A stretch of 64,000 bases of DNA from Clostridium sp. (lineage in GTDB: Bacteria; Bacillota; Clostridia; Clostridiales; Clostridiaceae): positions 45,271-109,270 of the forward strand of contig JALEZF010000007.1 of assembly GCA_022773025.1 (NCBI GenBank), in the 5' to 3' direction. Position numbers and translations under genes: made by a program. Below are positions 5,759 to 63,918 of the stretch, one piece after another (position 1 is the stretch's first letter; each line of letters opens with the position of its first letter). Under the pieces are notes generated by a model. The model was not told the origin of the DNA. It saw only the letters and a list, made by a program, of their open reading frames with translations, and made no database searches.

Positions 5759-5789
5759 CTAAAGGGAACTTTGGTTTGCTGTCTTTTTT
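5751..5789 (+). terminator. Riboswitch expression platform: intrinsic terminator
   Basis: AGACAG (5751-5756) pairs with CTGTCT (5779-5784), with an inner helix CTAAAG/CTTTGG around GGAA, followed by a T run. Its 5' arm shares CAG (5754-5756) with the closing helix of glycine aptamer 2, so the two structures exclude each other. Confidence 0.88.
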
Positions 5790-5846
5790 GTTTGAAAAAA
5801 ATGTGAAAAAAGTAATTATAATTACTACGAAAGGAATCAAAAGCAT

Positions 5847-6224
5847 ATGATAGAACCATGTATAATACTTACTAACAATCCATTAAGCAAAAAGACCTTC
5901 GAAGATAAATTTGAGGTTCAGTATAAAGAAACAGAAGTTTTAGATATTATGTGCATGGTAAGAAATCGAATACATGAAGGCCATAGACTATTGACACATC
6001 CTCTTATGAGCAGTGTAAAACCTAATGAAACTCCATATAGGACAATCGTTATTTCTAAGGAAAAAGGAAAATTAGATTTTGACTCTCTTACTATTATAGA
6101 GGACTCAATAAACACAACTAAAAAGTTTTTAAATATGGCTAAAACACCACAATGGACACAATCCATACTAGAAGACTTTGAACTAATAGATATGGATTTA
6201 ATAAAAAATGCTCTTAATCTTTAA
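5847..6224 (+). CDS. grdX: GrdX family protein
   Basis: 125 residues, beginning MIEPCIILTNNPLSKK, with the family stretch VRNRIHEGHRLLTHPLMSSVKPNETPYRT in the middle. GrdX is the small first gene of many glycine reductase operons; its biochemical role is not established. AAAGGAA lies upstream of the ATG. It is the first gene behind the glycine riboswitch, 58 nt after the terminator. The stop codon lies inside a hairpin (6206-6233). Confidence 0.9.
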   Translation: MIEPCIILTNNPLSKKTFEDKFEVQYKETEVLDIMCMVRNRIHEGHRLLTHPLMSSVKPNETPYRTIVISKEKGKLDFDSLTIIEDSINTTKKFLNMAKTPQWTQSILEDFELIDMDLIKNALNL

Positions 6225-6233
6225 AGAGCATTT
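6206..6233 (+). other. Intergenic hairpin grdX-trxB
   Basis: AAATGCTCTT pairs perfectly with AAGAGCATTT around an 8-nt loop that ends at the grdX stop. There is no proper T tract, so it is more likely an attenuator or mRNA-stability element than a full terminator. Confidence 0.55.
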
Positions 6234-6267
6234 ATAAAAAAGAATTTACGTAAGTAGGAGGATTAGT

Positions 6268-7191: not shown

Positions 7192-7210
7192 AATTAAATT
7201 TGTATTAAAT

Positions 7211-7237
7211 GGATGGCTGGATTAAAGCCAGCTATCC
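7211..7237 (+). other. Intergenic hairpin trxB-trxA
   Basis: GGATGGCTGG pairs with CCAGCTATCC (one G-U) around a 7-nt loop. No T tract follows. Confidence 0.5.
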
Positions 7238-7268
7238 TATAATAAATAAAAATATAGGAGTGATCAGA

Positions 7269-7598
7269 ATGATAGAATTAAATAAGGACAACTTTGAGGC
7301 AGAAGTGCTACAAAGCGAAAAACCTGTATTTGTTGATTTCTGGGGAGACAAATGTGAAATTTGTAAGGAATTAATGCCAGGAGTACATGGGTTAGAAGAA
7401 AAATATGCTGACAAGATCAAGTTTGCATCTTTAAATATCGGATCAGCAAGAAGACTTGCTATAGCTCAAAAAGTTTTAGGATTACCAACAATGATAATCT
7501 ATAACGGTGGAGAAAAAGCTCAAAGCATAACTCCAGACAAGATAGCAACTCTTGACGATGTAGAAAACTTTATAAAAACATATTACGAAACATTATAA
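7269..7598 (+). CDS. trxA: Thioredoxin dedicated to glycine reductase, unusual active site CEIC
   Basis: 109 residues with the thioredoxin fold pattern PVFVDFWGDKCEICKELMPG and GLPTMIIYNGG (cis-Pro). The redox pair is C29-E-I-C32; the ordinary WCGPC is replaced, W25 being four residues before the first Cys. Variant active sites are known for thioredoxins of amino-acid-reducing clostridia. The ATG at 7269 is chosen because TAGGAGTGATC precedes it and the protein then begins at the normal position; an ATG 60 nt further upstream would add a segment encoded by the 3' half of the preceding hairpin region and has no SD. Confidence 0.9.
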   Translation: MIELNKDNFEAEVLQSEKPVFVDFWGDKCEICKELMPGVHGLEEKYADKIKFASLNIGSARRLAIAQKVLGLPTMIIYNGGEKAQSITPDKIATLDDVENFIKTYYETL

Positions 7599-7613
7599 TT
7601 ATTAAGAAGGTTA

Positions 7614-7651
7614 TAACTAGAATTGTCTCAATATGGAGATAATTCTAGTTA
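7614..7651 (+). other. Intergenic hairpin trxA-grdE
   Basis: TAACTAGAATT pairs perfectly with AATTCTAGTTA and continues as TCTC/GAGA. There is no T tract, so an RNA processing or stabilising role is more likely than termination. Confidence 0.6.
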
Positions 7652-7691
7652 ATAATAAAAGAACTTTCAAATTATTTGGGAGGTGAAGGCT

Positions 7692-8978
7692 TTGCGTCTA
7701 GAATTAGGCAATATATTTATTAAAGACATGCAATTTGGAAATGACACAAAGGTAGAAAATGGAACTCTTTACATCAATAAAGAGGAATTATTACAAGCTG
7801 TTTCTGGTGATGAAAGAATAAAGTCTATCGACTTTGATATCGTAAGACCAGGAGAGGAAGTAAGAATTATACCAGTAAAAGACGTAGTAGAACCTAGAGT
7901 AAAGGTTGAAGGAAAGGGTGGAATATTCCCTGGCTTCATCAGCAAGGTTGATACTGTTGGATCAGGAAGAACTCACGTTTTAAAGGGAGCAGCAGTAGTT
8001 ACTACAGGTAAGGTTGTTGGTTTCCAAGAAGGAATTATCGACATGTGTGGAGAGGGAGCAAAATATACCCCATTCTCAAAGACTAACAATTTAGTAGCAG
8101 TAGTTGAGCCAAAAGATGGCGTTCATCAACATGAGCATGAAGAAGCTTTAAGAATGATAGGTTTTAAAGCTGCAACATACTTAGGCGAAGCAGGAAGAAA
8201 TGTTGAACCAGATGAAATAAAGACTTATGAAACTTTACCAATACTTGAGCAAGTTAAACAGTATCCAGAACTTCCAAAGGTAGTTTATGTGTACATGCTT
8301 CAAACTCAAGGATTATTACATGACACATATGTATATGGAGTAGATGCTAAGAAGATAATACCTACTTTCATTTATCCAACAGAAGTGTTTGATGGAGCAA
8401 TAGTTTCAGGAAACTGTGTATCCGCATGTGATAAGAACCCAAGTTATGTTCATATGAATCAACCAGTAATAACTGATTTATATGACAGACATGGAAAAGA
8501 CTTTAACTTCTTAGGCTGCATAATAACAAACGAAAATGTTTACCTTGCAGACAAGGAAAGAAGTTCAAATATGACTGCTAAACTAGTTGAATACCTAGGA
8601 GCAGATGCAGTTATAATTTCCGAAGAAGGATTCGGAAATCCAGATGCAGACTTAGTTATGAACTGCAACAAGATAACTGACAAGGGAATCAAGACAGTTC
8701 TTATAACTGATGAATATGCAGGACAAGATGGATGCTCACAATCATTAGCAGACTCAACTCCAAAGGCTGATGCTGTTGTAACAGGTGGAAATGCTAATGA
8801 AGTTATAACATTACCTCCAATGAAGAAGGTAATAGGACATCCAGAAGCAGCTAATATAATAGCTGGAGGATACGTTGGAAGTTTAAGAGAAGACGGATCT
8901 ATAAATGCAGAAATTCAAGTTATAACAGGTGCAACTTCAGAAGTTGGATTTAACTACTTATCTGCAAAGGGACTTTAA
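7692..8978 (+). CDS. grdE: Glycine reductase component B, GrdE proprotein (alpha/beta subunits)
   Basis: 428 residues from a TTG start. GGGAGGTGA (7678-7686) lies 5 nt before this TTG, and the protein then begins MRLELGNIFIKDMQFG as in other GrdE proteins; a GTG at 7683 overlaps the SD and is unlikely. With this start, the cysteine in SGNCVSACDKN is residue 242, the position at which known GrdE is cleaved to give two subunits, the downstream one with an N-terminal pyruvoyl group. With GrdB it forms protein B, which binds glycine as a Schiff base and delivers the carboxymethyl group to GrdA. Confidence 0.95.
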   Translation: MRLELGNIFIKDMQFGNDTKVENGTLYINKEELLQAVSGDERIKSIDFDIVRPGEEVRIIPVKDVVEPRVKVEGKGGIFPGFISKVDTVGSGRTHVLKGAAVVTTGKVVGFQEGIIDMCGEGAKYTPFSKTNNLVAVVEPKDGVHQHEHEEALRMIGFKAATYLGEAGRNVEPDEIKTYETLPILEQVKQYPELPKVVYVYMLQTQGLLHDTYVYGVDAKKIIPTFIYPTEVFDGAIVSGNCVSACDKNPSYVHMNQPVITDLYDRHGKDFNFLGCIITNENVYLADKERSSNMTAKLVEYLGADAVIISEEGFGNPDADLVMNCNKITDKGIKTVLITDEYAGQDGCSQSLADSTPKADAVVTGGNANEVITLPPMKKVIGHPEAANIIAGGYVGSLREDGSINAEIQVITGATSEVGFNYLSAKGL

Positions 8979-48904: not shown

Positions 48905-49260
48905 GGGGGCGCAATGGTTTCGACGGGGGTACGGAGTTCTAAGGAAGCGAGTGGAGGGAAGTATGGGCCCGCCTTAAAAAACGATGCACTAAATGTAAAC
49001 GCAGAAGATAATTTTGCATTAGCAGCTTAATATAGCTGTTCGTTCTACCTTTGAGTCCCACGGCTTAGGATAGGGCGTCGATTAGTGGGGAACCGAGCGT
49101 AGGAAAGCTTTGACCTATGAACGGAATTCATGAAGCTACTAAAGTGAAAAGCCTGCCAATGGGCGTTTCATAGAGGGAATGTTAAATCATCTGGCTGCAC
49201 TCGGAGATGCTTTAGGAGTTTGGCTTTCGGACAGGGGTTCGATTCCCCTCGCCTCCACCA
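48905..49260 (+). ncRNA. ssrA: tmRNA (transfer-messenger RNA)
   Basis: Mature RNA of about 356 nt. The 5' end GGGGGCGCAATGGTTTCGAC pairs (7 bp, one G-U) with CGCCTCC before the terminal ACCA, which is genomically encoded. The TpsiC-like GGGGTTCGATTCCCC is at 49233-49248. The tag reading frame reads GCA GAA GAT AAT TTT GCA TTA GCA GCT TAA (49001-49030), giving (A)EDNFALAA. It rescues stalled ribosomes with SmpB. The 3' end is a classical integration site; accessory DNA begins immediately after it. Confidence 0.97.
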
Positions 49261-49692: not shown

Positions 49693-52600
49693 ATGGCGGT
49701 CTTTAATGAGGATACCAGAGTTAAAATACCTGCTACTATACAGTATTTAAAGATAGGATATAAATATCAGTCCCTTAGGAATGCTGATGTGGATTTTCAT
49801 ACCAAGATATTTATGAATAGATTCAAGCCGGCACTTGAGAAGATAAACAGAAGGAAGTTTTCTTATGATGAGATTAAGGAAATCCTTATGGATATAGATA
49901 ATGTCATCAAGAATCATGACTTAGGGAAAGAATTTTATAAATGGATTATCAATCCTTTAGATAGGGTAAAGCTTATTGATTTTGAAAACGTTGATAATAA
50001 TGATTTTGCTGTGGTTGATGAGCTACCTTTCAATATCGTAGAGGGAACAGAGGAAGGATCATTCAGGCCTGATATAAATATACTTATAAATGGTATGCCT
50101 CTTGCCTTTCTTGAGGTTAAGAAGCCAAATAATGAGGGTGGTATTCAGCAGGAGTTTGACAGGATGATAAAGAAGCGACTGAAAAATAGGGATTATGCGA
50201 AGTATTTTAATTTGATACAGATGGTGTGCTTCTCTAACAATATGGAGTATGAGGAAGATGATGACTCTGAGGATGTGAAGGCTGGATCATTCTATACTAC
50301 ACCTAATGGAAATAGTACAAGCTTCTCATTCTTTAGGGAAGATGATGAGAGATATATTGCGGATTATCCGTACAAAGATATAAGTGAGAATAAGATAAAG
50401 GAAGTTATGAGAGACTGCGGATATAAGAGTTCAGAAGCAGATACTCCAGAGTTTAAGGAGAATCTGAGAAATGATTCACCATGCAATAGTTTCGTTACAT
50501 CTGTATTCGATAAGGAGAGATTTTTATATTTTTTACAGTATGGAATCATGTTTGTTGAGGAAAAAGTGCCTCAGAAACATATAATGCGTTACCCTCAGTT
50601 CTTTGCTACTAGAAAGATAATTGAAAGGCTGGAGTCAGGGGGAAAGGGCGGCATTATATGGCACACTCAGGGCTCAGGTAAGACAGGTCTTGCAGCTTTT
50701 GCTAACAGGGTAGTGAGAGACTACTATGGAGAGAAAAATATAAATACTAGGTTCTTCTTCGTGGTAGATAGGATAGAGCTTTTAAATCAGGCAAGTACTG
50801 AGTTTAAAAACAGGGGACTTAATGTGGTCAACTGCAGCAGCAGAGCAGACTTTACAAAAGAGCTTAATAAGAGTCTTTCAACCAATATTGACAGTAAATC
50901 AATAGGGGAAGTCTGCGTTGTTAATATACAAAAGTTTGAGGAAACCATACCAGAAGCTAAGAATGATTATGATGCTAACGTTCAGAGAGTATTCTTTATA
51001 GATGAGGCACATAGGAGCTATAAGATGACAGGAGAGTTCTTCAAGAACCTTATGACCTGTGATACAAACGCTGTTTATATAGCTCTTACAGGAACACCTC
51101 TGCTGACAAAGAAAGAGCGTTCAAACCTTAAGTTTGGTGATTATATTCATAAATATTTTTACGATAAGTCCATTGCAGACGGATATACCTTAAAGATTAA
51201 AAAAGAAAATATAGATACTGTGGCAAAGAAGGAGATATTGAATAATCTCCAGATAGAGGATACAAAGCTTGATGAAAAAGAAGTTTACGAATCTCCTGAG
51301 TACATAAATGACCTTGGACAGTTTGTAGAAAAGGATTTCAATAATTTTAGGCTTCAAAATGGAGATAAGACCATCGGAGGCATGGTGGTATGTAGAAGTA
51401 ATCCTCAGGCAAAGATGATGCAGGAATGGTTCAATAATAATTCCAAGCTTAGTACAGGACTTGTCATCTCAGATGAGAACAATGCTGCACAGTCACAAAT
51501 CAATAAGAGCAATCAGCTTAATTTCAGGGAGACTAATGCTCCTGATATTCTTATAGTTAATATGATGCTTACCACGGGCTATGATGTTAAAAGGCTTAAG
51601 AAGATGTATCTCTTAAGGGGACCTCATGCACAGTCTCTTCTTCAGACCATATCAAGGGTAAACAGGCCTTATAAATCACCTACAGGTAAGATTTATAAAT
51701 ATGGATATATAGTTGATTTTGTTGATATAACCCATGAATATGATAAGACTGTTGAAGCGTATATAAAGGAGCTTGAGGAAGACCTTAATGAAAATGGGGA
51801 AAATGAAGGCTCATTGAAGGGGCTTGTAATAAATAAGGATGATATAAATAAGAAATATCATGAGTATCAGGATAACCTCGATGAGATCATAAGCACTGAT
51901 AATCTTGAAAAATTCTCTAAGCAAATCGCAAATTTTAATAAGGATGCACTTTTTAAGATTAAGCGTCTTTTAAACGGTATAAAGGAGTGTTATACGGAGT
52001 TTATACTTTCAAGTGCGTCAGATTACGCAAAGCAGATTGACTCTGATAAGGTGAAGAAGCTTACACGCACAGTTCAGGAGAGGATAGACTTTATAAATTT
52101 GAAGACAAATACAGTAAGCATGATGGACGTTATCTCTAATGAAGATATTGTTCATATACTCTATGAATTTATAAAGACTAAGATAAGCATACTCAATCTA
52201 GGTGAGCTTTCTGAAGATGATGAGAGGGTAAGACGTTTCACTGATATAGTCAAAGAAGTTCAAAATGAGGTAAAGAAGAACAAGAATAAAGAGGACGTTA
52301 AGATTGTAATGCTGGACGAACTTTTGCAGAAGATATTTAACAAGCTTGAAATAGCAGATTTAGACCAGCTTGATGATATTTCAGATGAACTTTTACAGGC
52401 ACTATGCAACGCAAGAGATATAAACTACGAAAATGACAGGCTTTCCAGAAACTATGGAGGTAATTTCGGATTTGTTAAGACTTATCAGGATGCAGTTGAG
52501 CTTTATCAGGATGCTGACAAAAAATCAATAGAGAGACTTCTTCTTGCAGCATATGAGGATGTTAAGGATAACCTTGATAATGATGTGCTTTTGATTCAGG

Positions 52601-52737
52601 GAAGGGATAACTTTATAGCTTCTATAAAGCATGATATTACAAAGATACTTCTAAAGGAGAAGATTTATTCATCCATAAAGAAGTTCTATGACAAGATATT
52701 AAGTGAGCTTTACACTAATATTCAGTTATTTAAATAG
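49693..52737 (+). CDS. hsdR: Type I restriction enzyme, R subunit (HsdR)
   Basis: 1014 residues. N-terminal PD-(D/E)xK nuclease with D127 (RPDINI) and E141-V-K143 (FLEVKKPN), then an SF2 translocase with Walker A IWHTQGSGKT (K330), DEAH 437-440 (FFIDEAHRSYK), ALTGTPL, and motif VI LLQTISRVNRPYKS, and a helical C-terminus. Cleaves and translocates unmethylated DNA with HsdM and HsdS. ATG behind GGGGGGTGG. 14 nt before hsdM. Confidence 0.96.
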   Translation: MAVFNEDTRVKIPATIQYLKIGYKYQSLRNADVDFHTKIFMNRFKPALEKINRRKFSYDEIKEILMDIDNVIKNHDLGKEFYKWIINPLDRVKLIDFENVDNNDFAVVDELPFNIVEGTEEGSFRPDINILINGMPLAFLEVKKPNNEGGIQQEFDRMIKKRLKNRDYAKYFNLIQMVCFSNNMEYEEDDDSEDVKAGSFYTTPNGNSTSFSFFREDDERYIADYPYKDISENKIKEVMRDCGYKSSEADTPEFKENLRNDSPCNSFVTSVFDKERFLYFLQYGIMFVEEKVPQKHIMRYPQFFATRKIIERLESGGKGGIIWHTQGSGKTGLAAFANRVVRDYYGEKNINTRFFFVVDRIELLNQASTEFKNRGLNVVNCSSRADFTKELNKSLSTNIDSKSIGEVCVVNIQKFEETIPEAKNDYDANVQRVFFIDEAHRSYKMTGEFFKNLMTCDTNAVYIALTGTPLLTKKERSNLKFGDYIHKYFYDKSIADGYTLKIKKENIDTVAKKEILNNLQIEDTKLDEKEVYESPEYINDLGQFVEKDFNNFRLQNGDKTIGGMVVCRSNPQAKMMQEWFNNNSKLSTGLVISDENNAAQSQINKSNQLNFRETNAPDILIVNMMLTTGYDVKRLKKMYLLRGPHAQSLLQTISRVNRPYKSPTGKIYKYGYIVDFVDITHEYDKTVEAYIKELEEDLNENGENEGSLKGLVINKDDINKKYHEYQDNLDEIISTDNLEKFSKQIANFNKDALFKIKRLLNGIKECYTEFILSSASDYAKQIDSDKVKKLTRTVQERIDFINLKTNTVSMMDVISNEDIVHILYEFIKTKISILNLGELSEDDERVRRFTDIVKEVQNEVKKNKNKEDVKIVMLDELLQKIFNKLEIADLDQLDDISDELLQALCNARDINYENDRLSRNYGGNFGFVKTYQDAVELYQDADKKSIERLLLAAYEDVKDNLDNDVLLIQGRDNFIASIKHDITKILLKEKIYSSIKKFYDKILSELYTNIQLFK

Positions 52738-52751: not shown

Positions 52752-54413
52752 ATGACAGAGATATTTGATTTAGAAAATAAGATTAAACAGATAATAGATG
52801 AGCTGAAGGGGCTCTGCCAGACAAACGGACTTTCAAACCAGGCATCTGAGGAAGTGGTTATAACCGCAGTATTCCTATACAAATTTCTTAATGATAAGTT
52901 TATGTACAACTTAAAGGAGTTTGCAAAAGAGATAGACATGGAATATACAGAAGTATTGAAAAATGAAAATGATGAGCTTGATGCTTTTTATGATTCATAC
53001 CCACAGGATGTAGCGTTTACTTATGATGAGACAATTGAATATCTTATAAATAAGGTATCATACAATGAGTTTTACAAGCTCTTTGATAATGCACTTGAGA
53101 AGATATCAAATGATACGAAGAATGAAGTCTTCAGCATAGATACAGCAGATGGAGGAAGAAAGCCACTATTTACAAGGATTACAGAAAATGTTGAGGTATC
53201 TAAGAGGAATAATTTTGCAAAGAATATCTTTGGAATCATAAGTCAGGAGAGGTTTGACTTTGGCAGTGCCTTTAAGAAAAATTTTGACTTCTACAGCACT
53301 ATATTTGAGTATCTTATCAAGGATTACAATGTGGCAAGCGGAGTATATGCTGAGTATTTTACACCTCAGGCCATTTCAAAGATTATATCAAAGATACTTG
53401 TAAATATGACTCCTGTGGAGGATAAGATATATGAGATTTATGACCCGTCAGCAGGTTCAGGCTCCCTTGTGCTTCACCTTGCAAATGAGCTTGGAAAGGG
53501 CTCTTTTGGAGAGAAGGCACATGTTTATACTCAGGATATATCAGGTAAATCATCTAGATTTTTAAGAATTAATATGCTTCTTAACGGGCTTACGAGCAGT
53601 CTAGATAATATTATTGAAGGGGATACCCTTGATACTCCAGCACATTATATTATCCCTCATGATCCAAGCTCAGGAGTTAAGAAGTTTGATTATATAACAT
53701 CTAATCCTCCTTTCAAGATGGATTTTTCATCTACGAGGAATTCCATAGAACAGAAATGGGAGAAGACAGACAGATTCTTTGCAGGAGTGCCTAAAATTCC
53801 AAATAAGAAGAAAGAGTCAATGGCTATATATCTATGCTTTATACAGCATATCCTATGGTCATTAAAGGATGATGGAAAGGCTGCTATAGTAGTGCCTACA
53901 GGCTTTATAACAGCTCAATCTGGAATAGAAAAGAGTATAAGAAAACAGATAGTGGACAACCACTGGCTTAAAGGTGTAGTATCTATGCCTTCAAATATAT
54001 TTGCAAATACAGGCACAAATGTATCAGTTCTCTTTATAGATAAATCCAATAAGGAAGGAAAGGTAATGCTCCTTGATGCATCAAAGCTTGGCACTAAGGT
54101 TAAGGATGGCAAGAATCAAAAGACAGTGCTTAATGATGATGAAGTGAAGAAGATAGAGGATACATTTATAAATGCAGAAGCAGTGGAAGATTTCAGCGTT
54201 CAGGTTACATATGATGAGATCACAGAAAAGAACTACTCCCTGTCAGCAGGTCAGTACTTTGAGGTAAAGATAGAGTATGTGGACCTAACCCCAGAAGAGT
54301 TTAATGAAAAGATGAACAGCTATAAGGAAAATTTAAATAAGTATTTCAATGAAGGAAGATCTCTTGAAGAAGAAATAAAAAGGAGATTGGAGGAGTTGGA
54401 ATATGAAAGTTAA
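52752..54413 (+). CDS. hsdM: Type I restriction-modification methyltransferase, M subunit (HsdM)
   Basis: 553 residues. N-terminal helical domain, then the N6-adenine methylase core with SAM motif YDPSAGSGSLV (D231) and the catalytic NPPF at 318-321, as in gamma-class enzymes. Methylates adenine at the site defined by HsdS. GGGGGAGATTTTACA precedes the ATG. It overlaps hsdS by 11 nt, ensuring coupled translation. Confidence 0.96.
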   Translation: MTEIFDLENKIKQIIDELKGLCQTNGLSNQASEEVVITAVFLYKFLNDKFMYNLKEFAKEIDMEYTEVLKNENDELDAFYDSYPQDVAFTYDETIEYLINKVSYNEFYKLFDNALEKISNDTKNEVFSIDTADGGRKPLFTRITENVEVSKRNNFAKNIFGIISQERFDFGSAFKKNFDFYSTIFEYLIKDYNVASGVYAEYFTPQAISKIISKILVNMTPVEDKIYEIYDPSAGSGSLVLHLANELGKGSFGEKAHVYTQDISGKSSRFLRINMLLNGLTSSLDNIIEGDTLDTPAHYIIPHDPSSGVKKFDYITSNPPFKMDFSSTRNSIEQKWEKTDRFFAGVPKIPNKKKESMAIYLCFIQHILWSLKDDGKAAIVVPTGFITAQSGIEKSIRKQIVDNHWLKGVVSMPSNIFANTGTNVSVLFIDKSNKEGKVMLLDASKLGTKVKDGKNQKTVLNDDEVKKIEDTFINAEAVEDFSVQVTYDEITEKNYSLSAGQYFEVKIEYVDLTPEEFNEKMNSYKENLNKYFNEGRSLEEEIKRRLEELEYES

Positions 54414-55680
54414 AGTATCAGATATAGCAATAATTAATAGATGTAGTATTGGAGATAAGTGTAAAATTGAAAAAATTAAATATTTAGATACTGGAAGTAT
54501 TATTGAGGGAAATATAATTGAGTATAAAGATTTACAAGTAGGAAGAGATATAATTCCAAGTAGGGCAAAAAGATTAGTAAAAGATAATACAATACTATAC
54601 TCAGCTGTTAGGCCTAGACTTTGCCACTATGGGATATTAGACAAACCAGCTGAAAATACAGTAGTATCTACAGGGTTTATTACTATTGATGCTATAAAAG
54701 AGAAGGTTGACCCTTATTATCTATATTGTAAATTAATTAAAAGGGAAATGACAGAGTATTTAGCTTCAATTGCAGATACAGCAGTATCTTCATATCCGTC
54801 CATAAATCCTAGTGATTTAGGAAATTTAGAGATAGATATAATTGATGATATTCATAAACAAGAAGAAATATCTATATTATTTAAGAATGTTGAGAATAAG
54901 ATTAAGAATAATAATAAAATTAATTTTGAATTAGAATCAATGGCAAAGACTATTTATGATTATTGGTTTTTGCAGTTTGAGTTTCCTAATGAAGAAGGTA
55001 AGCCTTATAAGTCATCAGGAGGAAAGATGGTTTGGAATAAGGAATTAGGAAGAGAAATTCCGGAAGGATGGGAAGTAAAGAATATTTTCGAATGTATGGA
55101 TGTCATTTATGGAGTACCATTGTCAACAGAGTTGTTTAATAAAGCTGAAGGAATACCTATAATTAGGATCAGAGATATTTTAAATAATACAGTATCTGCA
55201 AAAACAGTAGAGGATGTAGATGAGAAATACCTTTCTAAGAAAAAAGATTTATTAATTGGAATGGATGGTAATTTTCATATGAATTTTTGGAGTAATGATG
55301 GGGACTGTATAAATCAACGAATAGTCCGTATTAGGGATGCAAATAAAAAAGTATCATCATTACAAGCTTATTATGAAATAGCACCATATATTAAAGCAAG
55401 GGAAGGAAATGTTGCAAGATCTACAGTAGGGCATTTGAGTGATAGAGATATGAAACAATTAAAGATATTAGTGCCTGATAGAATGTATATATACAAATAC
55501 TTTAATAGTATACTTGAAGAAATGTGTATAAATAAATCAGAAAACCGATACTTAGCATCTCTTCGAGATTTTCTTCTACCTCTTCTTATGAATGGACAAG
55601 TTGGATTTAAAGAGAATGTAGGAGAGAAAGAGATGGAAGCAGGTAAGGAAGAAGTTGCTGCTTCGGTACATGGGAAATAG
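54403..55680 (+). CDS. hsdS: Type I restriction-modification specificity subunit (HsdS)
   Basis: 425 residues with the two-TRD layout: TRD1 (about 1-160), central conserved helices (HKQEEISILFKNVENKI, ELESMAKTIYDYWFLQFEF), TRD2 starting IPEGWEVKNIFE (about 220-370) and a C-terminal conserved helix with LASLRDFLLPLLMNGQV. It sets the bipartite DNA recognition sequence, which cannot be predicted by eye. The gene is much more AT-rich than hsdR and hsdM just upstream, as expected if specificity genes are exchanged. Confidence 0.94.
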   Translation: MKVKVSDIAIINRCSIGDKCKIEKIKYLDTGSIIEGNIIEYKDLQVGRDIIPSRAKRLVKDNTILYSAVRPRLCHYGILDKPAENTVVSTGFITIDAIKEKVDPYYLYCKLIKREMTEYLASIADTAVSSYPSINPSDLGNLEIDIIDDIHKQEEISILFKNVENKIKNNNKINFELESMAKTIYDYWFLQFEFPNEEGKPYKSSGGKMVWNKELGREIPEGWEVKNIFECMDVIYGVPLSTELFNKAEGIPIIRIRDILNNTVSAKTVEDVDEKYLSKKKDLLIGMDGNFHMNFWSNDGDCINQRIVRIRDANKKVSSLQAYYEIAPYIKAREGNVARSTVGHLSDRDMKQLKILVPDRMYIYKYFNSILEEMCINKSENRYLASLRDFLLPLLMNGQVGFKENVGEKEMEAGKEEVAASVHGK

Positions 55681-55705: not shown

Positions 55706-55834
55706 TTGAAGCAGAATAATACAGAAGAATTTTCAATGAAATTTTACGGTATGCTTGAAGAGTTATTGCAACAAATTAAATGTGTAGGGGATTATAATTA
55801 TAAGATCTTAAATGCTTTAATGGAAGGTGAATAA
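55706..55834 (+). CDS. Small ORF of 42 codons between hsdS and the helicase gene
   Basis: TTG start at 55706 behind an excellent SD (AGGAGGAA, 55693-55700), ending TAA 55832-55834. The peptide runs MKQNNTEEFS..., is predicted largely helical (MLEELLQQIKCV) and ends NALMEGE. Its end provides the SD GGAAGGTGA for the following helicase gene, 6 nt away. No homologue is recognised. The SD, spacing and operon position argue that it is translated. Confidence 0.55.
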   Translation: MKQNNTEEFSMKFYGMLEELLQQIKCVGDYNYKILNALMEGE

Positions 55835-55840
55835 AATACA

Positions 55841-58282
55841 ATGGATTGTAACTATATAGCTTTAAAATATTATAGACATGCAGTTGAATTAAAAGAAATA
55901 TATGAACTAGTTAAAAATGGCGTGGTGGTTCATATTTTTACAAATCAGGATCAGAATGAAGTGCTTGATGTTATAAGTGGATATAATCAGTGTTTAAAAG
56001 ATGCTAAAGAGTTGAGATTTGTGAATGTGTATAGAACTGATTATATGCTGCAAGATGATGAAATTATAGCATTGGATAATAAAATATTAAATGCTGAATT
56101 TTATGAGAAAGTATGTAAATTAAGGGAGGTAGGTTTTAACTATCAACAATATGAGATTATTACTGCTGAAAAAAACAATAATTACATTGTAATAGCAGGA
56201 GCTGGTACTGGAAAAACTACAACAATGATAAATAGGCTCATATATTTAAGAAAAACTGATTACAGTTTTGATTTTAGCAAGGTTATTCTTATAACATTTA
56301 CTAATAAAGCAAGTATTTCAATGAGAAATAAATTACTTTCTACTTTAGATGATTATTTTACAGTGACGAGGGATAATTTTTATCTTAATGTAATGGATGA
56401 AACTTCAAGTGCAATTATATCAACAATCCATGGTTTTGCAAAGAAATTAATTAATGATAATGGTGAAAATATTAATATAAATAAAATGGCAGAGATAAAA
56501 TCTTTTAAATATCAAAGACAACGAGCAATAACTAGTGGGTTGGACTATCTATATAAAGAGCATACAGAACTATACAAGGTAATAAAATATTACCCATTAT
56601 ATCAGGTGAATAGAAGGTTAGTTGAAATATGGGAAAAGCTTGATAATTACTCTATTGATTTGAATAACCCTGATTGCAAAGTTGATTTTGGAGAAGATGA
56701 AAAGAAATTTAGTGAGATATTAAAGATAGTCTTAGTTAAGGCACAGCAGTATTTAGATAATAACAAGGATTATGAATTTGAAATTGCCGATTTAATGAAA
56801 AAGCTTGCATATAAAGATTTGTTAATAAAAGTGAAAAACGATTATGACTTGATAATGGTAGATGAGTTTCAGGATAGTGATAATGTACAAATTGAATTTA
56901 TAGCAAAATTCAGTAATATTACTGGGGCTAAACTTTTTGTGGTTGGAGATGAAAAACAAAGTATCTATAGATTTAGAGGTGCTGAGCATACTGCATTTGG
57001 TAAACTTAAAAAATCCATTGGAGAATATAAAGAAAAATGTTATGAGTTTTCTATGGTTCGTAATTATAGGACTGATTCATGTTTATTAGAAGATATTAAT
57101 AATTGCTTTATTAAAATAAGTGAAAATGTTGAAAAATTTAATTATGATGAGAAGAATCAAATATATTCCCTAGAGAATAAAGAAGTTAAAACAAAAATAG
57201 ATTTAATAAAGCTTCCTAAAGAGGATATTAGGGCAGTTGGAGATTTTTATGAAAGTCTTCTTAAGAATAAAAAGAATGATGAATATGTTGCGGTTTTATT
57301 TAGAACTAATGAGGATTTAAAGGATTTTAAGAGATTTTGTGATATGGAAAGTTTAAGGTGCAGAATTGATGTATCTGGACAATTCTTTAGACATCAAAGT
57401 GTAAGAGATTTTTATATAATGCTTAAAGCTTTAACTAATTATAAACAAAATGAGATTATATACTCTTTGGTTGACAGTCCATATATTAACACTTCTATTA
57501 ATAAGAAAGTGATAATAGAAAATGATACAGATAAAATACATGACTATCTAGATGATATTCTTGATAGGGAAGGATGGTATAAATATACAAGTCTTGTAAA
57601 TAGCATGGATTCACTATCTCTGATTGATAAGGTCATAGCTGAAATAAATCCTATAAAGAATTATTATGAACATGAATATTTTAAGGCTAAAAGAAATTCT
57701 AGGGATGCAAAGAAGACAGCATATGCAAAAGCCTTGGAATATAAGATAAATCTTGAATATTTAGTATATCTATTAAAAGATAAATTCGCAGATAATGTGT
57801 CATCTATTGAGGCTATACAGAGTTTTTTGAAAAATAAAATTGCTACTGATAATTCAGTAGATGTTAGAAGACTTGAGAAAGTGATTGATGAAAAAGGAAA
57901 AACTCAGATAGATGAAGCTGACTTTCTTCAGTGTTCTACGGTTCATAAAGCCAAAGGTCTTGAATATGAATATGTAGTTTTACCTAAAATGAATAATGAA
58001 TTTATTGTGGGAGGAAATGTAGATATCATTATAAGAAGCAATCTAAATGTAGTTACAATTGGTTTTAAAGTGAAATTTGGAAATGATGAATATATGAACT
58101 CATATTATATTAATTATAAGAAAAATGAGAAGGAAGAAATAATTGGTGAAGAAGCTAGGCTTCTATACGTTGCAATGACTAGATGTAAGAATAGGCTGTA
58201 TTTAAATGCTGGGGGAGTAGTTGGAACAGAAGGACAAAATAATTGGAAAAGTCTTATAGGGGGAGCTGTATCTTATGTATAA
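55841..58282 (+). CDS. UvrD/PcrA-like SF1 helicase with extra N-terminal domain
   Basis: 813 residues. The first 105 or so residues are a separate domain I do not recognise (MDCNYIALKYYRHAVELKE...). The helicase then begins NYQQYEIIT (Q motif) and has Walker A AGAGTGKTTT (K125), motif Ia ITFTNKAS, ISTIHGFAKK, Walker B VDEFQDSD (341-347), motif III GDEKQSIYRFRGAE, motif IV RNYRTD, motif V HKAKGLEYEYVVLP (H702) and motif VI LLYVAMTRCKNRLYL. There is no nuclease domain. It overlaps the next gene by 8 nt, so the products are probably made together. Confidence 0.88.
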   Translation: MDCNYIALKYYRHAVELKEIYELVKNGVVVHIFTNQDQNEVLDVISGYNQCLKDAKELRFVNVYRTDYMLQDDEIIALDNKILNAEFYEKVCKLREVGFNYQQYEIITAEKNNNYIVIAGAGTGKTTTMINRLIYLRKTDYSFDFSKVILITFTNKASISMRNKLLSTLDDYFTVTRDNFYLNVMDETSSAIISTIHGFAKKLINDNGENININKMAEIKSFKYQRQRAITSGLDYLYKEHTELYKVIKYYPLYQVNRRLVEIWEKLDNYSIDLNNPDCKVDFGEDEKKFSEILKIVLVKAQQYLDNNKDYEFEIADLMKKLAYKDLLIKVKNDYDLIMVDEFQDSDNVQIEFIAKFSNITGAKLFVVGDEKQSIYRFRGAEHTAFGKLKKSIGEYKEKCYEFSMVRNYRTDSCLLEDINNCFIKISENVEKFNYDEKNQIYSLENKEVKTKIDLIKLPKEDIRAVGDFYESLLKNKKNDEYVAVLFRTNEDLKDFKRFCDMESLRCRIDVSGQFFRHQSVRDFYIMLKALTNYKQNEIIYSLVDSPYINTSINKKVIIENDTDKIHDYLDDILDREGWYKYTSLVNSMDSLSLIDKVIAEINPIKNYYEHEYFKAKRNSRDAKKTAYAKALEYKINLEYLVYLLKDKFADNVSSIEAIQSFLKNKIATDNSVDVRRLEKVIDEKGKTQIDEADFLQCSTVHKAKGLEYEYVVLPKMNNEFIVGGNVDIIIRSNLNVVTIGFKVKFGNDEYMNSYYINYKKNEKEEIIGEEARLLYVAMTRCKNRLYLNAGGVVGTEGQNNWKSLIGGAVSYV

Positions 58283-60935
58283 GGTGAAAACGCATAATAA
58301 TTCTAAAGAGTATTTTAATAATTTAATTATTGAGAAGGAAACACTATATATCACAGCAAACTCTTCAATATCTCAAATGATTATAGAAAATAAAAAATTA
58401 TCTTTAAATGAGAAAGTTAATGTGATGGATATTGAAAATTTTATTAATATGATATATCCAATTTGGAATGATACAATGAATCAAATAAGACTTAAAGCAG
58501 TACTAAGAAGTTTTTTATTAGAGATGAAAAGTAAAGAAACGGTTGCAGATAACATTAAAGTGCTAAATTACTTAAATGATAATATTTCTATATTGCTCAG
58601 TGATTTTAGATATTTATATGAATCTGGGATTAGACATATAAATGAGACAAAAGATGATGTGAAGTCTGTATTTATAAGAAAGATATATAATGACTTTATA
58701 AATGATGAATATTTTAAAAAGGTTAGTCAAGAACTATCATCTAATAAAGTTTTTGAATGTATAGGAGATAGTAGTTGTAAGTATTATATTGGGAAAGTTA
58801 AAAAGTCAAATGAAGATAGAGCTAAGAAAGAGTTTGAAGAATTAAAGAAGTATAGTCATAACATAAAAAGGATTTATTTTTATAATATTAGTAATATTGA
58901 TCTTAAGAGATATATGCTTATTGAATCATTAAGGGTATCGGGTTATGAAATTGAATTTAGGATTCCATATTATGAGGATATACCTGTGCTGAATAAATGC
59001 TGGGATATGGTTTATAAAGATAAGGATTTATTTGAAATCACTATAGATAAAGATTATTGCACACCTACTAAGAGGAATATAAAGTATATTAATTTTCTTA
59101 ATGGGATGAGAACTGATTTCCCAACTGATGAAGATGTGGTTACTAAGAGTTATAAAGAAGTATATGATTTTAAGAAAGATATTAAAGATGATTGTTTCAT
59201 AACATTTTATAAAGGTAGTATTAATGCTAGTATAGATAGAAGTAAGATACATATAAATGAGCATTGTTATCAGACTGCTATAGGAAAATTTTTGTTGAAT
59301 TTATATAAATGTGGAGTTGAAGATTCAGATGTTAAACTTGATTTTTCTATGTTTAGAGAAATGATTACATCTGGATGGATTGATTATAAAGAATGGAATG
59401 GAACAAAGCTTAAAGCATATCTTATTGATAATGAAGAGTATTTTTCTGGTGTTAAAAGTATAAATGAGATAATACAAAGAATTTATGGGATAAAAGAAAT
59501 ATGTGAAGTCTGTGATATATTTGAAAGTCAATCGAAAAGTAAAATAGGAAATAATAAAACAAAAGCTTTTTTAGCAAATCCTTTTAAATGTCTAAGCTAT
59601 ATAAATACTGATAAGTATGATATTACAGTAGCATATTTGTTAGAAACTACTTTGAAGTTAAAAAGAAGTATACTTAAATTATATAATAATGAAAATCAAT
59701 ATATAAATATTGAGATGCATTTTAATGATTTATATTTATTATTTAATAATAAATATATGAGAAGTCTATATGTGAATGGTACTGATATTGAAAAAGTTAC
59801 CATTAAAAAGATTTATCAACTTTTAAAGAATCCAGATGTTATTGGGAAAAGGGTCTATAAAGATGATTTGTCAGAAATGATTAGTTTAAAGCTTCTGTTT
59901 GCATCCAAGAGTGAAGAAAAAGAAAATGATTTTTCTATTGATCAGCTTGAAGGAGTAATTTTAAGAGATTCATTATTTAAAAATTATAAAATTCTCCATA
60001 TAAGTGACTTATCTTATCAAGCATATAAAGAATATAGTGATATGCATGATAAGTCATTTAGAGTTATGTCTCAAGGGGATATTAAGTATTTAATTGATAA
60101 AAATCTTATTGGACAAAATAAGATATCAGCATTTCAAGCACTTAAGTTACAGTATAAAAGTGAAAAATCCTATCAAAGTTATATAAAATTTGCATTGGGT
60201 AATCTTTTTATTAATTTTAATGGAAGAATAGAGTTTAGTTGGATAAAGGGGATTAGACGTGATGATACTGAGTCAATAATATTTAAACAGATTGAATCTA
60301 TATATAAAAATCATGTATATGTATCTAAGGGATTAGATAGTAAAGAGATAGATATTGACGAACTTGACAGGAAGTATATTGATTATAGTAAAACTGAATT
60401 ATACTCATCTAAAAAAAATATACCTGAAGTGGCTGCTTTAAATTTAGATTTTTGTGGAGATAAGTTTTTATTTTCATCTATTATAAATGATTATCCTATT
60501 TATAAATCTGATTTTCATCAAAGACTAGTTTTTGCAGAGCTTGTAGGCATATTAAAAGATGGCATAGAGGATGGAATTTCTAATATTAAGAAATATTTAT
60601 TTCCGTTATTTCCTCAATGGCAGGATGTTGAGAAAACTAATATATTAGATTGCGAATATGTGAGAAAAAAGATTAATGATTATAAATATTTTGATGGAAT
60701 GAACTATCCAAAAGAAATGGATAAATTATATCTTTTAAAGAGTAGATATATAGTTGGTGAGAAAAATAAAATAAGAAATAGATATAATGATAGACCTTTT
60801 ACTCCTGATAAATATTTTAATGAGTTCATAGATGATTATATAACTGATGCTGAAAATCATGGTGGTAGACATTGTATGATGTGTCCTTATTGTTTTGTTT
60901 GTAGAGAGGGGGAGTTCATAATTGACAGTATCTAA
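58275..60935 (+). CDS. AddB/RecC-like protein with C-terminal four-cysteine cluster, nuclease motif not seen
   Basis: 886 residues, very Lys/Asn/Ile/Tyr-rich. The N-terminus (LYITANSSISQMIIE ... VNVMDIENFINMIYPIW) resembles the degenerate helicase start of AddB/RecC-like proteins and lacks a Walker A. The C-terminus HCMMCPYCFVCRE (Cys867, 870, 873, 876) fits the CxxCxxxxxC iron-sulfur staple of AddB and Cas4; an upstream partner could be Cys727. I could not find the GxxD...ExK nuclease residues. It sits between two UvrD-like helicase genes and overlaps both, which suggests an AddAB-like complex. The family call is by motif resemblance only. Confidence 0.6.
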   Translation: MYKVKTHNNSKEYFNNLIIEKETLYITANSSISQMIIENKKLSLNEKVNVMDIENFINMIYPIWNDTMNQIRLKAVLRSFLLEMKSKETVADNIKVLNYLNDNISILLSDFRYLYESGIRHINETKDDVKSVFIRKIYNDFINDEYFKKVSQELSSNKVFECIGDSSCKYYIGKVKKSNEDRAKKEFEELKKYSHNIKRIYFYNISNIDLKRYMLIESLRVSGYEIEFRIPYYEDIPVLNKCWDMVYKDKDLFEITIDKDYCTPTKRNIKYINFLNGMRTDFPTDEDVVTKSYKEVYDFKKDIKDDCFITFYKGSINASIDRSKIHINEHCYQTAIGKFLLNLYKCGVEDSDVKLDFSMFREMITSGWIDYKEWNGTKLKAYLIDNEEYFSGVKSINEIIQRIYGIKEICEVCDIFESQSKSKIGNNKTKAFLANPFKCLSYINTDKYDITVAYLLETTLKLKRSILKLYNNENQYINIEMHFNDLYLLFNNKYMRSLYVNGTDIEKVTIKKIYQLLKNPDVIGKRVYKDDLSEMISLKLLFASKSEEKENDFSIDQLEGVILRDSLFKNYKILHISDLSYQAYKEYSDMHDKSFRVMSQGDIKYLIDKNLIGQNKISAFQALKLQYKSEKSYQSYIKFALGNLFINFNGRIEFSWIKGIRRDDTESIIFKQIESIYKNHVYVSKGLDSKEIDIDELDRKYIDYSKTELYSSKKNIPEVAALNLDFCGDKFLFSSIINDYPIYKSDFHQRLVFAELVGILKDGIEDGISNIKKYLFPLFPQWQDVEKTNILDCEYVRKKINDYKYFDGMNYPKEMDKLYLLKSRYIVGEKNKIRNRYNDRPFTPDKYFNEFIDDYITDAENHGGRHCMMCPYCFVCREGEFIIDSI

Positions 60936-63000
60936 TGAAGATAAAAAGATGTTCTTTACAAAACTATCAAAGCTATGGACTAACTTTAAGGATTATTCCT
61001 ATATTAGTGGCATAACATTATCTCATGATCAAATTAGTATTATTGAGCAAAATGAAAAACAGATGCTTATAGAAGGATATGCAGGGACTGGGAAAAGTTT
61101 AACCTTACTTTATAAATTTATAGATATAATTGTAAGGGAAAATAATAAAAGAATTCTGTTTGTTACATATAATTCTGCACTTATTGATGATACTAAGAAA
61201 AGATTAAATTTATCAAAGGAATATATAGATAATGTTAATAGGCATGAAACATTTGTTATGACATTTCATGAGATCTCAAGTAAAATTCTAAAGACGATAA
61301 GAATTATTAATAAAGAATGCAATTATTTAACAGCTGATAGGATTAAAAAGTTTGAAGATGATGAATACCGTAGAATAGCATCTATATCAGCAAGATATAT
61401 TCAAAAAACTGGCGAAATGTATAAAGTGATTTCTGATGATGAAAAACTATATTCTACTCATAATGAAAAATTTATAATGGATGAAATTAGATGGATCAAA
61501 GCGATGGGATTCACTAAGCTTGAAAACTATCTTGCGACTGAAAGAACCGGAAGAAGTAAGAGTATAAGACTTACAAGAAATCAAAGAAAAACTATTTTTA
61601 GAATATATAAAGAATATCAGAAAGAGATGGAAAGCTCGAAATATGGATATGCAACTCTTGATCTAGAAGATTATGCATTAAAAATATTAGAAAACAGTAC
61701 TCTCATTGAAGACGACTTGAAGTTTGATTATGTATTTGTTGATGAAGTACAAGACCTTGATCCTATGCAAGTTATGGCATTATGTAAGCTTACAAAAGGA
61801 AATATCATACTGTCTGGTGATGCAAAACAGAGAATATATAAGAAGTGCCCTATAAAATATGAGCAGCTGGGTTTGAATGTAAATCAAAAAGGTAGGAGAA
61901 AACTTTTAAAGAAAAATTTCAGATCAACTAAAGAAATAGTGAATCTTGCAAACTCATTAAGATTTTATGACTCTGATGGTAAATACAATACAGAGGACTA
62001 TGAAAAACATGGGGACAAACCCATAATAAAATATTCAAATGATATCAATAAGATTCTCAAGTATGTTGTTAATGAGATTAAGACAATACAACATGAAAAT
62101 CCAAAGGCAACAATAGCAATTGTTAATAGAGAAGAAATAAAGAATAGGACTGGAAATAAAAGCAACTTTAGAATAGGGTTAGAAATGCAATTGATGCAAA
62201 GTTTAGTTGATGTAAACACATATAATAAAAAGTTTGATTTTTCTAAGGAGAAACAGATTTTTTATACGAATGTATATGATATTAAAGGGCTTGAATTTGA
62301 TGTAGTCTTTGTTATGGATTTTAATAAAATATATTATCCTTACAGTGAAGGCATTCAAAAGATTAAGGATAATAATGATAGTAAGGATGAAAGTTCACTA
62401 AATGATGATTTAATTGAATTCTATAATACAGAGAAAAAGCTTCTTTATGTAGCCATGACTAGAGCTAAAGAAAGGTTATATCTTATTGCTAGTGGGAATT
62501 TTAATAACTCTATATTGGATCCAAGTAAAAAGATATCAGAATATATATTTGATTTTGAAACCAAGGATTATATTTCTAATGGATTTAAAAAAACTGATAT
62601 TGAATCTGGTAAATCAAAATATAATAATGTTGGTTTTGGTAGGATTTTAAAGGACAAGCAGGAGTATAAGATTCAAATGGATATAGATAAGTCTATGCTA
62701 AAAGAAGGTCTTAAATCTCAAACTAAGATTGAAAAAAATGAAATCAAAGATGCAGTTACAAATGAAGATTACCCAATAGCTAATCAGGATAATTTGACTA
62801 GGGATGAGATAATTGAAAAGATTATTAAACCTGTATTAGGTAAAAACAAGATACGTTTCATTGATAATAGATCTAAAAAAGGAGCCTTTTGGGTTATAGG
62901 TGGAATGGAAATTGCTGATATTCTTAAGGTGTTTAGTAAATATAAAGTGTCATTTATCTTCAAAAAAGATGGTGGACGAGCAGTTTGGTATACTAAATAG
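60922..63000 (+). CDS. Second UvrD-like SF1 helicase with distinct C-terminal domain
   Basis: 692 residues from a TTG behind GAGAGGGGGAG (7 nt), overlapping the previous gene by 14 nt. Q motif LSHDQISII, Walker A GYAGTGKSL (K58), Walker B VDEVQDLD (274-280), GDAKQRIYKKCP, KKNFRSTKEIV, VYDIKGLEFDVVFV and LLYVAMTRAKERLYL. After the helicase core comes a linker and a C-terminal unit (about 615-692) with FIDNRSKKGAFWVIGG, a motif I recall from the tails of some bacterial helicase-like proteins. It differs from the first helicase and is not a duplicate. Confidence 0.87.
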   Translation: MTVSNEDKKMFFTKLSKLWTNFKDYSYISGITLSHDQISIIEQNEKQMLIEGYAGTGKSLTLLYKFIDIIVRENNKRILFVTYNSALIDDTKKRLNLSKEYIDNVNRHETFVMTFHEISSKILKTIRIINKECNYLTADRIKKFEDDEYRRIASISARYIQKTGEMYKVISDDEKLYSTHNEKFIMDEIRWIKAMGFTKLENYLATERTGRSKSIRLTRNQRKTIFRIYKEYQKEMESSKYGYATLDLEDYALKILENSTLIEDDLKFDYVFVDEVQDLDPMQVMALCKLTKGNIILSGDAKQRIYKKCPIKYEQLGLNVNQKGRRKLLKKNFRSTKEIVNLANSLRFYDSDGKYNTEDYEKHGDKPIIKYSNDINKILKYVVNEIKTIQHENPKATIAIVNREEIKNRTGNKSNFRIGLEMQLMQSLVDVNTYNKKFDFSKEKQIFYTNVYDIKGLEFDVVFVMDFNKIYYPYSEGIQKIKDNNDSKDESSLNDDLIEFYNTEKKLLYVAMTRAKERLYLIASGNFNNSILDPSKKISEYIFDFETKDYISNGFKKTDIESGKSKYNNVGFGRILKDKQEYKIQMDIDKSMLKEGLKSQTKIEKNEIKDAVTNEDYPIANQDNLTRDEIIEKIIKPVLGKNKIRFIDNRSKKGAFWVIGGMEIADILKVFSKYKVSFIFKKDGGRAVWYTK

Positions 63001-63034: not shown

Positions 63035-63379
63035 AGGAAGCTATGTATTGTATCTACTGGAATAATGACACCGCTCTCTATAGAGACAGCAGACGAGCTG
63101 GCTAAAGAGGGGATTAAAGTTACAGTATTAAATATTCATAATATAAAGCCTTTAGATATAAAATCTATATTAAATAATGTTATAAAGTGCAATAGAACTC
63201 TTTTTGTTGTTGAAGAAGCAAATAAAATTGAAGGACGAGGGAAACTATTGCATATGGGTTACAAGGTAAATGTGAATTCAGAATGAAACATATTGTTATA
63301 AATAATAGATTTTTACAATCAAAAAACAGCAGGGTTGCTTGCAAAGTATGGTATCACAGCTTTAAATATTATTAAATAG
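63035..63379 (+). pseudogene. Decayed transketolase C-terminal fragment
   Basis: In one frame from 63035 the translation reads CIVSTGIMTPLSIETADELAK and VTVLNIHNIKPLD, the transketolase C-terminal domain. An in-frame stop at 63284 and another at 63299 interrupt it, and the same frame resumes with GLLAKYGITALNIIK ending at 63379, like the end of a transketolase. No start or catalytic part remains. It is different from the intact split transketolase at 38178-39946. Confidence 0.7.
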
Positions 63380-63588: not shown

Positions 63589-63918
63589 ATGGTAAACGAC
63601 ATAGACAGATTAACACATTCAAAATGGAGGTGTCAATATCATATAGTATTTGCGCCGAAATACAGAAGACAGATAATATACGGAAAATATAAAAGTGAGA
63701 TTGGAAAAATATTGAGAGAAATATGTAGGAGAAATGGAGTAGAAATAATAGAAGCTAATACATGTCCGGATCACATACATATGTTAGTAAGCATTCCACC
63801 GAAAATGAGTGTATCAAAATTTATGGGGATTTTAAAAGGTAAAAGTAGTCTAATGATTTGTAAGCGTCAAAGTTTTAGTGTCTTCAATAATTTCAAAAAT
63901 AGTATTAAAATATCCTAG
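63589..63918 (+). pseudogene. tnpA: IS200-type transposase TnpA, C-terminally truncated
   Basis: 109 residues of an expected 140-150. SKWRCQYHIVFAPKYRRQIIYG and the HUH motif H62-I-H64 (CPDHIHMLVSIPPKMSVSKFMG) are intact. After GKSSLMI the sequence turns into an unrelated tail (CKRQSFSVFNN...), so the catalytic tyrosine helix is lost. It should be inactive. AGGAGGTGTCGC precedes the ATG. Confidence 0.85.

What the first reader, a model, noticed from the sequence alone, without database searches (positions are those of the whole stretch)
55706..63000. Uncharacterised helicase / AddB-like / helicase module attached to a type I RM locus
Directly behind hsdRMS lie a 42-codon ORF and three genes whose starts overlap the preceding stops (8 and 14 nt): a UvrD-like helicase with an unknown N-terminal domain, an 886-residue AddB/RecC-like protein with a Cys4 C-terminus, and a second, different UvrD-like helicase. 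Two SF1 helicases flanking an AddB-like scaffold without visible nuclease residues does not match any defence system I can name (it is not Gabija, Zorya, BREX, DISARM, Druantia or ordinary AddAB). One idea is that the complex unwinds DNA that HsdR or a host nuclease then destroys.
Basis: partly seen in the sequence, partly recalled or inferred. Interest (0 to 1): 0.82.

Follow-up and report, generated by a model that had tools for sequence, protein, structure and literature searches.

The report
Three-gene helicase module in defence islands
Next to a bacterial DNA-cutting immune locus sits a set of three genes, two DNA motors and a scaffold that looks like a DNA-repair protein without its cutting site; it seems to travel as a unit and is often found among anti-virus genes, so it may well be an undescribed immune system.

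Summary
In detail: hsdRMS, a 42-codon ORF, then helA (813 aa), addBL (886 aa), helC (692 aa), the last two overlapping the gene before by 8 and 14 nt. It is not housekeeping: the host has full AddA and AddB elsewhere. No library model credibly matches AddBL. I found 14 loci (Clostridiaceae, other Firmicutes, two Bacilli plasmids, one gut phage-labelled scaffold); nine have all three genes full-length. Distances agree among the three proteins (Mantel r 0.95-0.98) but poorly with host AddB (0.37-0.50, not significant): it moves as a unit. By my reading 9 of 13 loci lie beside defence genes; flanks of the hosts' AddAB loci matched 4 PADLOC models against 145. Type I RM flanks three loci, of differing families, so this is no hsdRMS accessory. 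AddBL keeps four 'iron-staple' cysteines in 12 of 12 sequences, but no Asp/Glu is conserved family-wide in its last 190 residues: the nuclease looks dead. AddB ancestry is suggestive only. Both helicases keep ATPase motifs. Best reading: a stand-alone anti-phage or anti-plasmid complex that grips DNA ends and unwinds them with two motors, without its own nuclease in the clostridial form. Function is inferred, not shown.

The parts
48905..49260 (+). tmRNA gene (ssrA); its 3' end is the left border of the variable segment
   Evidence: ARAGORN; same-genus genome G184 aligns at 94% up to window base 49261 and then differs
49693..52737 (+). hsdR, type I restriction subunit (neighbour, not part of the conserved module)
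   Evidence: PF18766, PF04313; PADLOC REase_I
52752..54413 (+). hsdM (neighbour)
   Evidence: PF02384 E 3.1e-67
54403..55680 (+). hsdS (neighbour)
   Evidence: PF01420 E 4.1e-18
55706..55834 (+). 42-codon ORF (TTG start, AGGAGGA upstream); the other loci were not searched for it with ORFs this short
55841..58282 (+). helA: SF1 UvrD/AddA-type helicase (813 aa) with a ~95-aa N-terminal part that no library recognised; no C-terminal nuclease domain
   Evidence: PF00580/PF13361; nearest NCBIfam model AddA, TIGR02785 E 9e-40, 136 bits against a cut-off of 708; nearest PDB sequence AddA; motifs GAGTGKT and DEFQDSD
58275..60935 (+). addBL: 886-aa scaffold, no Walker A, iron-staple-type cysteines C727, C867, C870, C876, nuclease motifs not visible
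   Evidence: no credible family match; four Cys in 12 of 12; weak in-register match to AddB
60922..63000 (+). helC: second SF1 UvrD-type helicase (692 aa, TTG start); the last ~110 aa resemble the C-terminal 'EH signature' part of ZorC
   Evidence: PF00580/PF13361; GYAGTGKS and DEVQDLD; ZorC1 model E 9.6e-5 on the tail

Best explanation
helA-addBL-helC encode a stand-alone, horizontally moving defence complex related in design to AddAB/RecBCD. AddBL is the scaffold: an N-terminal part without a P-loop and a C-terminal iron-staple domain whose nuclease centre has been lost but whose four-cysteine, DNA-end-binding fold is kept. HelA and HelC are two live SF1 motors. The complex loads on free ends of incoming DNA (injected linear phage DNA, or ends made by a neighbouring restriction system) and unwinds or occupies them, preventing circularisation, replication or packaging; in the clostridial form host nucleases finish the DNA, while one related copy carries its own NERD nuclease domain fused to HelA. 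Shown here: gene order, co-inheritance, spread independent of host AddB, defence neighbourhood, intact helicase motifs, retained cysteines, no family-wide acidic residue in the old nuclease region. Inferred: complex formation, Fe-S cluster, end binding, target, outcome.
For: Conserved order and overlaps; Mantel r 0.96, 0.95, 0.98 (p 0.0001) among the three proteins over nine loci, against 0.37-0.50 (p 0.09-0.16) with host AddB over seven. Flank proteins of 10 loci (76, all ORFs of 100 aa or more but one) match 145 PADLOC models at E<=1e-25, flank proteins of the same ten genomes' AddAB loci (104) match 4. Strong HsdM within 10 kb in 3 of 10 genomes, 0.21 expected (Poisson p 0.0013); without the window's genome 2 of 9 against 0.19 (p 0.016). 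Host owns a full AddAB. Four Cys in 12 of 12. ZorC-like tail on 2 of 11 HelC. NERD fused to HelA, with a WYL-type gene upstream, in L083. Precedents: iron-staple domain of AddB (PMC7430649, passages); Gabija favours injected ends and blocks circularisation (PMC12407980, abstract and headings).
Against: No experiment. In L017, L027 and L028 I recognised no defence neighbour, and L012 is ambiguous. The 145 PADLOC models are redundant: the 25 shown are all type I or type II RM models matched by two or three proteins each, so the figure rests on few loci. On the Geobacillus plasmid the trio follows DNA polymerase IV and YolD genes, which would also suit repair. No conserved nuclease partner accompanies the trio. 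Among nearer sequences some acidic residues are invariant (D725 in eight; D746 and E829 in five), so a lineage-specific site is not excluded.
Confidence: 0.55

Rival explanations
1. The trio is a repair or recombination module of mobile elements: an AddAB-like end processor without nuclease that protects or recombines plasmid or island DNA rather than attacking phage.
For: Two plasmid copies, one behind DNA polymerase IV and YolD genes; the window copy lies behind an ssrA border where a same-genus genome differs; helicase family nearest AddA.
Against: The other copies in named or held genomes were not identified as plasmids and many lie among restriction and other defence genes; 10 of 10 genomes tested already own AddB; no recombination partner gene was recognised among the flank proteins scanned with Pfam, though I made no systematic search for one.
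Confidence: 0.2
2. One reading: the trio is an accessory to type I RM, unwinding DNA that HsdR or a host nuclease degrades.
For: Adjacent and co-directional with hsdRMS in the window; type I RM beside 3 of 13 loci, more than expected.
Against: The RM systems differ between loci (HsdR 24-25% identity to the window's), 10 of 13 loci have no type I RM that I recognised, and GC separates trio from hsdR/M.
Confidence: 0.1
3. The complex is a helicase-nuclease after all: a cryptic active site in AddBL or in the unrecognised N-terminal part of HelA cuts DNA.
For: A related HelA carries a NERD nuclease domain; the Exiguobacterium AddBL is annotated as PD-(D/E)XK nuclease family and its C-terminus matches a Cas4-like model at E 8.1e-5; D725, D746, E829 and H748 are conserved within subsets.
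Against: The Cas4-like match covers residues 871-908 of 913, the cysteine end; no Asp/Glu is conserved in 10 or more of 12 sequences from residue 700 on; no nuclease model hits the three window proteins (of HelA's 39 PADLOC hits 25 were shown).
Confidence: 0.15

Closest known systems
AddAB (RexAB) helicase-nuclease
   Same: An SF1 AddA-type helicase beside a large scaffold ending in C...C-x2-C-x5-C; two sub-significant, collinear matches to host AddB.
   Different: HelA lacks AddA's nuclease domain; AddBL lacks AddB's Walker A (invariant in the host AddB set) and visible nuclease motifs; 140 against 316 residues between first and second cysteine; a third gene, a second live helicase. The host has a normal AddAB besides.
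RecBCD
   Same: Three subunits with two motors and a catalytically dead scaffold, as a design (recalled).
   Different: Both motors are UvrD-type; no RecB nuclease; AddBL found no RecC or other credible match among PDB sequences.
Gabija (GajAB)
   Same: UvrD-type helicases; GajB models are the best PADLOC hits of both helicases.
   Different: No GajA recognised beside the trio; AddBL matches no Gabija model.
Zorya (ZorC)
   Same: The C-terminal ~110 residues of HelC in the window and in C. saudiense match the ZorC tail (E 9.6e-5 and 2.5e-8).
   Different: No ZorA, B, D or E model was hit by the trio; the tail is absent from 9 of 11 HelC proteins.
Iron-staple nucleases (AddB C-terminus, DNA2, Cas4, Bad)
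   Same: Four-cysteine signature spanning the domain (described in PMC7430649, passages).
   Different: The shared nuclease motifs are not visible.

Membership tests
AddAB | AddB model TIGR02773 matched | tested here: not met
   No NCBIfam match to AddBL; the own-genome TIGR02773 search hit addB on C13 and helicases on C13 and C79, not the trio's addBL
AddAB | Nuclease domain on AddA and on AddB | tested here: not met
   HelA's Pfam match ends at residue 788 of 813 with no nuclease domain; no Asp/Glu conserved in 10 or more of 12 AddBL sequences from residue 700; subset-conserved acidic residues exist
AddAB | AddB-type C...C-x2-C-x5-C iron-staple signature | tested here: met
   12 of 12 AddBL sequences; same spacing in host AddB
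AddAB | Helicase-like AddB fold | tested here: inconclusive
   hhalign N-terminal match 126-216 to 140-230, 0 of 300 column shuffles as good, yet probability 4%; no structure could be predicted
Gabija | GajA partner | tested here: inconclusive
   No GajA hit among the trio proteins and none among the annotated genes next to it; the window left of about 44 kb was not surveyed
Zorya | ZorAB membrane motor with ZorC/D or ZorE | tested here: not met
   Trio proteins hit only ZorC's tail; the genes annotated beside it are hsdRMS, a transketolase fragment and a transposase
Type I RM accessory | Constant linkage with hsdRMS | tested here: not met
   Seen at 3 of 13 surveyed loci
Anti-phage defence system | Enrichment among defence genes and horizontal spread | tested here: met
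   few independent loci
Anti-phage defence system | Restriction of phage or plasmid in cells | not testable with these tools
   Needs plaque, conjugation or transformation assays

The most novel reading that the evidence does not exclude
A nuclease-free, DNA-end-sensing two-motor complex, built from an AddAB-like repair machine whose cutting site was discarded while the iron-staple end grip was kept, works as a stand-alone immune system: it recognises invaders by their unprotected ends and disables them by motor action alone, with a nuclease (NERD) added only in some lineages.
Probability: 0.33. Interest if true: 0.8.

Novelty: new variant of a known kind. Interest (0 to 1): 0.62.

Why it matters
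If it defends, it is a system absent from PADLOC 2.0 whose scaffold has no credible family model in the libraries searched, and a natural separation of DNA-end recognition from DNA cutting in an AddAB-like machine. One could then test directly whether unwinding or occupying DNA ends is enough to stop a phage, which bears on how systems such as Gabija tell foreign linear DNA from the host's own breaks.

Tried and rejected
Ordinary AddAB/PcrA: rejected; full host addA and addB lie on contig C13. Catalogued system: no PADLOC, NCBIfam or PHROGs model for AddBL, only a sub-threshold Pfam hit; the helicases match as generic UvrD proteins. CRISPR-like arrays, as reported for another AddB-like nuclease (PMC10910872, one passage): the repeats shown near the trio (20 of 29 direct families) have two or three diverged copies, no array. 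Phage-borne family: AddBL queries found nothing in phages or viral contigs (and 105 with the gut relative); only a HelA query led to one unverified gut scaffold with HelA and AddBL. A second phage-labelled hit, L084, has no AddBL. On plasmids HelA at E<=1e-20 occurs only in the two records that also have AddBL; HelC-like helicases are wider spread (12 records). PDB profile hits of AddBL to growth factors (E 0.04 and worse) vanish with the broader alignment. The HelC tail found nothing on plasmids, phages or in the PDB. A second copy of the ssrA end: none in the window, so the right border is undefined; the contig ends with the window. Structure prediction was off, so no fold search was made.

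Print: searches of the held library listed no paper that I recognised as describing this trio; passages of PMC12839542 hold neither UvrD nor AddB. Subscription papers and most preprints are not held. The defence count (9 of 13) is my reading of Pfam, PADLOC and record annotation; for L017, L027 and L028 only two, three and two flank proteins were scanned with Pfam (L017 and L028 flanks were also in the pooled PADLOC scan, which does not name members). L083 (8.4 kb) was left out of it. In the PADLOC comparison one short ORF overlapping the tmRNA was dropped from 77 flank ORFs and the 20 AddA/AddB ORFs from 124 control ORFs; four loci (L011, L012, L027, L083) were not in it.

Full report
What is there. 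Behind polC and the tmRNA gene ssrA (48905-49260) the window carries hsdR, hsdM and hsdS, a 42-codon ORF, and three co-directional genes: helA (55841-58282), addBL (58275-60935) and helC (60922-63000), the latter two overlapping the gene before by 8 and 14 nt. Plausible ribosome-binding sites precede the small ORF, addBL and helC (by eye). HelA and HelC are UvrD-family SF1 helicases by Pfam, nearest to AddA among NCBIfam models though far under its cut-off; the nearest PDB sequence is AddA for HelA and PcrA, then AddA, for HelC. AddBL matched nothing credible: Pfam's best is E 0.033 below cut-off, and NCBIfam, PHROGs, PADLOC and PDB sequences gave none.

Not housekeeping. The host genome (3.15 Mb, 98% complete) has full-length addB and addA over the curated cut-offs on contig C13, and 10 of 10 trio-bearing genomes tested have an addB over the cut-off.

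A conserved, rare, mobile trio. A search with AddBL found it in 8 of 225 genomes of the order, the window's own included. Profiles added a diverged ninth, G160, and G549 of another family: 3 of 398 genomes sampled across the phylum (G000, G160, G549), 4 of 391 across the class (G000, G160, G195, G045), 1 of 9 in G549's order. Plasmids of Geobacillus zalihae and Exiguobacterium acetylicum carry relatives (2 of 72,556 records). In the phage collection the AddBL query found none, but a HelA query led to an unverified gut scaffold, MT836883, with HelA and an AddBL relative (HMM E 2.7e-43). Of these 14 loci, nine have all three full-length genes; in G199 and G190 only part of helA was found (G190 is split over contigs, G199 is 81% complete); G160 and Exiguobacterium have HelA and AddBL without a recognised HelC; the gut scaffold is cut off by its end.

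The 8- and 14-nt overlaps are identical in five of ten loci measured, all close relatives; in the others the figures depend on the start codon assumed. Pairwise distances agree among the three proteins (Mantel r 0.96, 0.95, 0.98; p 0.0001; nine loci) and poorly with the hosts' AddB (r 0.37-0.50; p 0.09-0.16; seven loci). In the window GC is 25-28% for the trio, 30% for hsdS and 35% for hsdR/M. The segment begins at the ssrA 3' end: a same-genus genome aligns at 94% up to window base 49261 and then carries other genes, two of which look like pieces of a serine recombinase (my reading of the sequence, no model run).

What AddBL is. Across 12 full-length sequences the invariant residues include C727, C867, C870 and C876, with the C...C-x2-C-x5-C spacing seen in the host AddB set (C800, C1116, C1119, C1125) and known as the iron-staple signature of AddB, DNA2, Cas4 and Bad (PMC7430649, passages). 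The Exiguobacterium C-terminus matches a Cas4-like nuclease model at its cysteine end (E 8.1e-5). But only 140 residues separate the first and second cysteine, against 316 in the host AddB, and no Asp or Glu is conserved in 10 or more of 12 sequences from residue 700 on. Against this, D725 is invariant in the eight sequences of alignment A1 and D746 and E829 in the five of A3, and H748 in 10 of 12, so a lineage-specific site is not strictly excluded. There is no P-loop at the N-terminus (by eye). Profile comparison with AddB is sub-significant but in register at both ends: columns 126-216 on 140-230, and the cysteine end on the cysteine end; each beat 300 of 300 column shuffles and the reversed profiles, with hhalign probabilities of only about 4%. 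I take AddB-like architecture as likely, not shown.

Motors and accessory domains. Walker A and the DExQ motif are kept in 11 of 11 HelA and 11 of 11 HelC aligned (its printout was cut further on in HelA). HelC of the window and of C. saudiense carries an extra C-terminal domain, absent from the other nine, that matches the tail of ZorC (E 9.6e-5 and 2.5e-8). In the gut scaffold HelA has an N-terminal NERD domain over Pfam's cut-off (E 2.3e-12; not found in the two plasmid records), and the gene before it matches WYL proteins of the PDB (E about 5e-4); that WYL regulators often precede defence operons is recalled. So one related copy has a nuclease domain that the clostridial form lacks.

How it most likely works. 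AddB's Fe-S cluster has been reported as essential for binding broken DNA (Yeeles 2009; only its title was seen, in a reference list; not held). Keeping that element while losing the nuclease centre, with two live motors, suggests a machine that grips DNA ends and unwinds or occupies them. Gabija offers a precedent: it favours injected ends, is licensed where RecBCD is kept away, and blocks circularisation (PMC12407980, abstract and headings). Complex formation, cluster, polarity and target are untested.

Novelty. AddBL is in none of the libraries searched, and searches of the held papers listed no description that I recognised. PMC10910872 mentions a different AddB-like nuclease with an inactive helicase domain beside a repeat array (passage); no array was seen here. 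I rate it a new variant of a known kind: AddAB/RecBCD design, apparently recruited to defence without its nuclease.

Noticed in passing
window 49260/49261 and L082: The ssrA (tmRNA) 3' end is a border of variable DNA in this genus: identity to a same-genus genome stops there, and that genome has ORFs there that look like a serine recombinase in pieces.
   Followed up: partly
L083 (MT836883.1) 607-8363: A human-gut scaffold labelled phage carries a WYL-type gene, a HelA with fused NERD domain and a longer AddBL, cut off by the record end: a possible nuclease-bearing branch.
   Followed up: partly
window 62650-63000 and L014:14213-14593: HelC's C-terminal domain resembles the ZorC tail and is present in two of eleven HelC proteins: an exchangeable accessory domain.
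   Followed up: partly
L012:6672-18057 (Exiguobacterium plasmid): HelA and AddBL relatives followed by a 681-aa unknown, a HerA-like ATPase and a colicin-DNase/HNH protein, no HelC recognised: perhaps another architecture.
   Followed up: no
L085:8299-10356, L087:6980-8323: HelC-like helicases without AddBL annotation occur on plasmids beside restriction genes and DarT ADP-ribosyltransferases (Rhizobium, Streptomyces).
   Followed up: no
window 63065-63286: Fragment of a transketolase C-terminal domain (73 aa), apparently a remnant at the right side of the module.
   Followed up: no
window 63589-63918: IS200-like Y1 transposase ORF of 109 aa, matching 83 of the 121 profile positions, close to the contig end.
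   Followed up: no
L029:2017-12988: Two C5 DNA methylases, a HelA relative, a distant AddBL and a DUF3841 gene near one another: a possible methylation-linked branch.
   Followed up: partly
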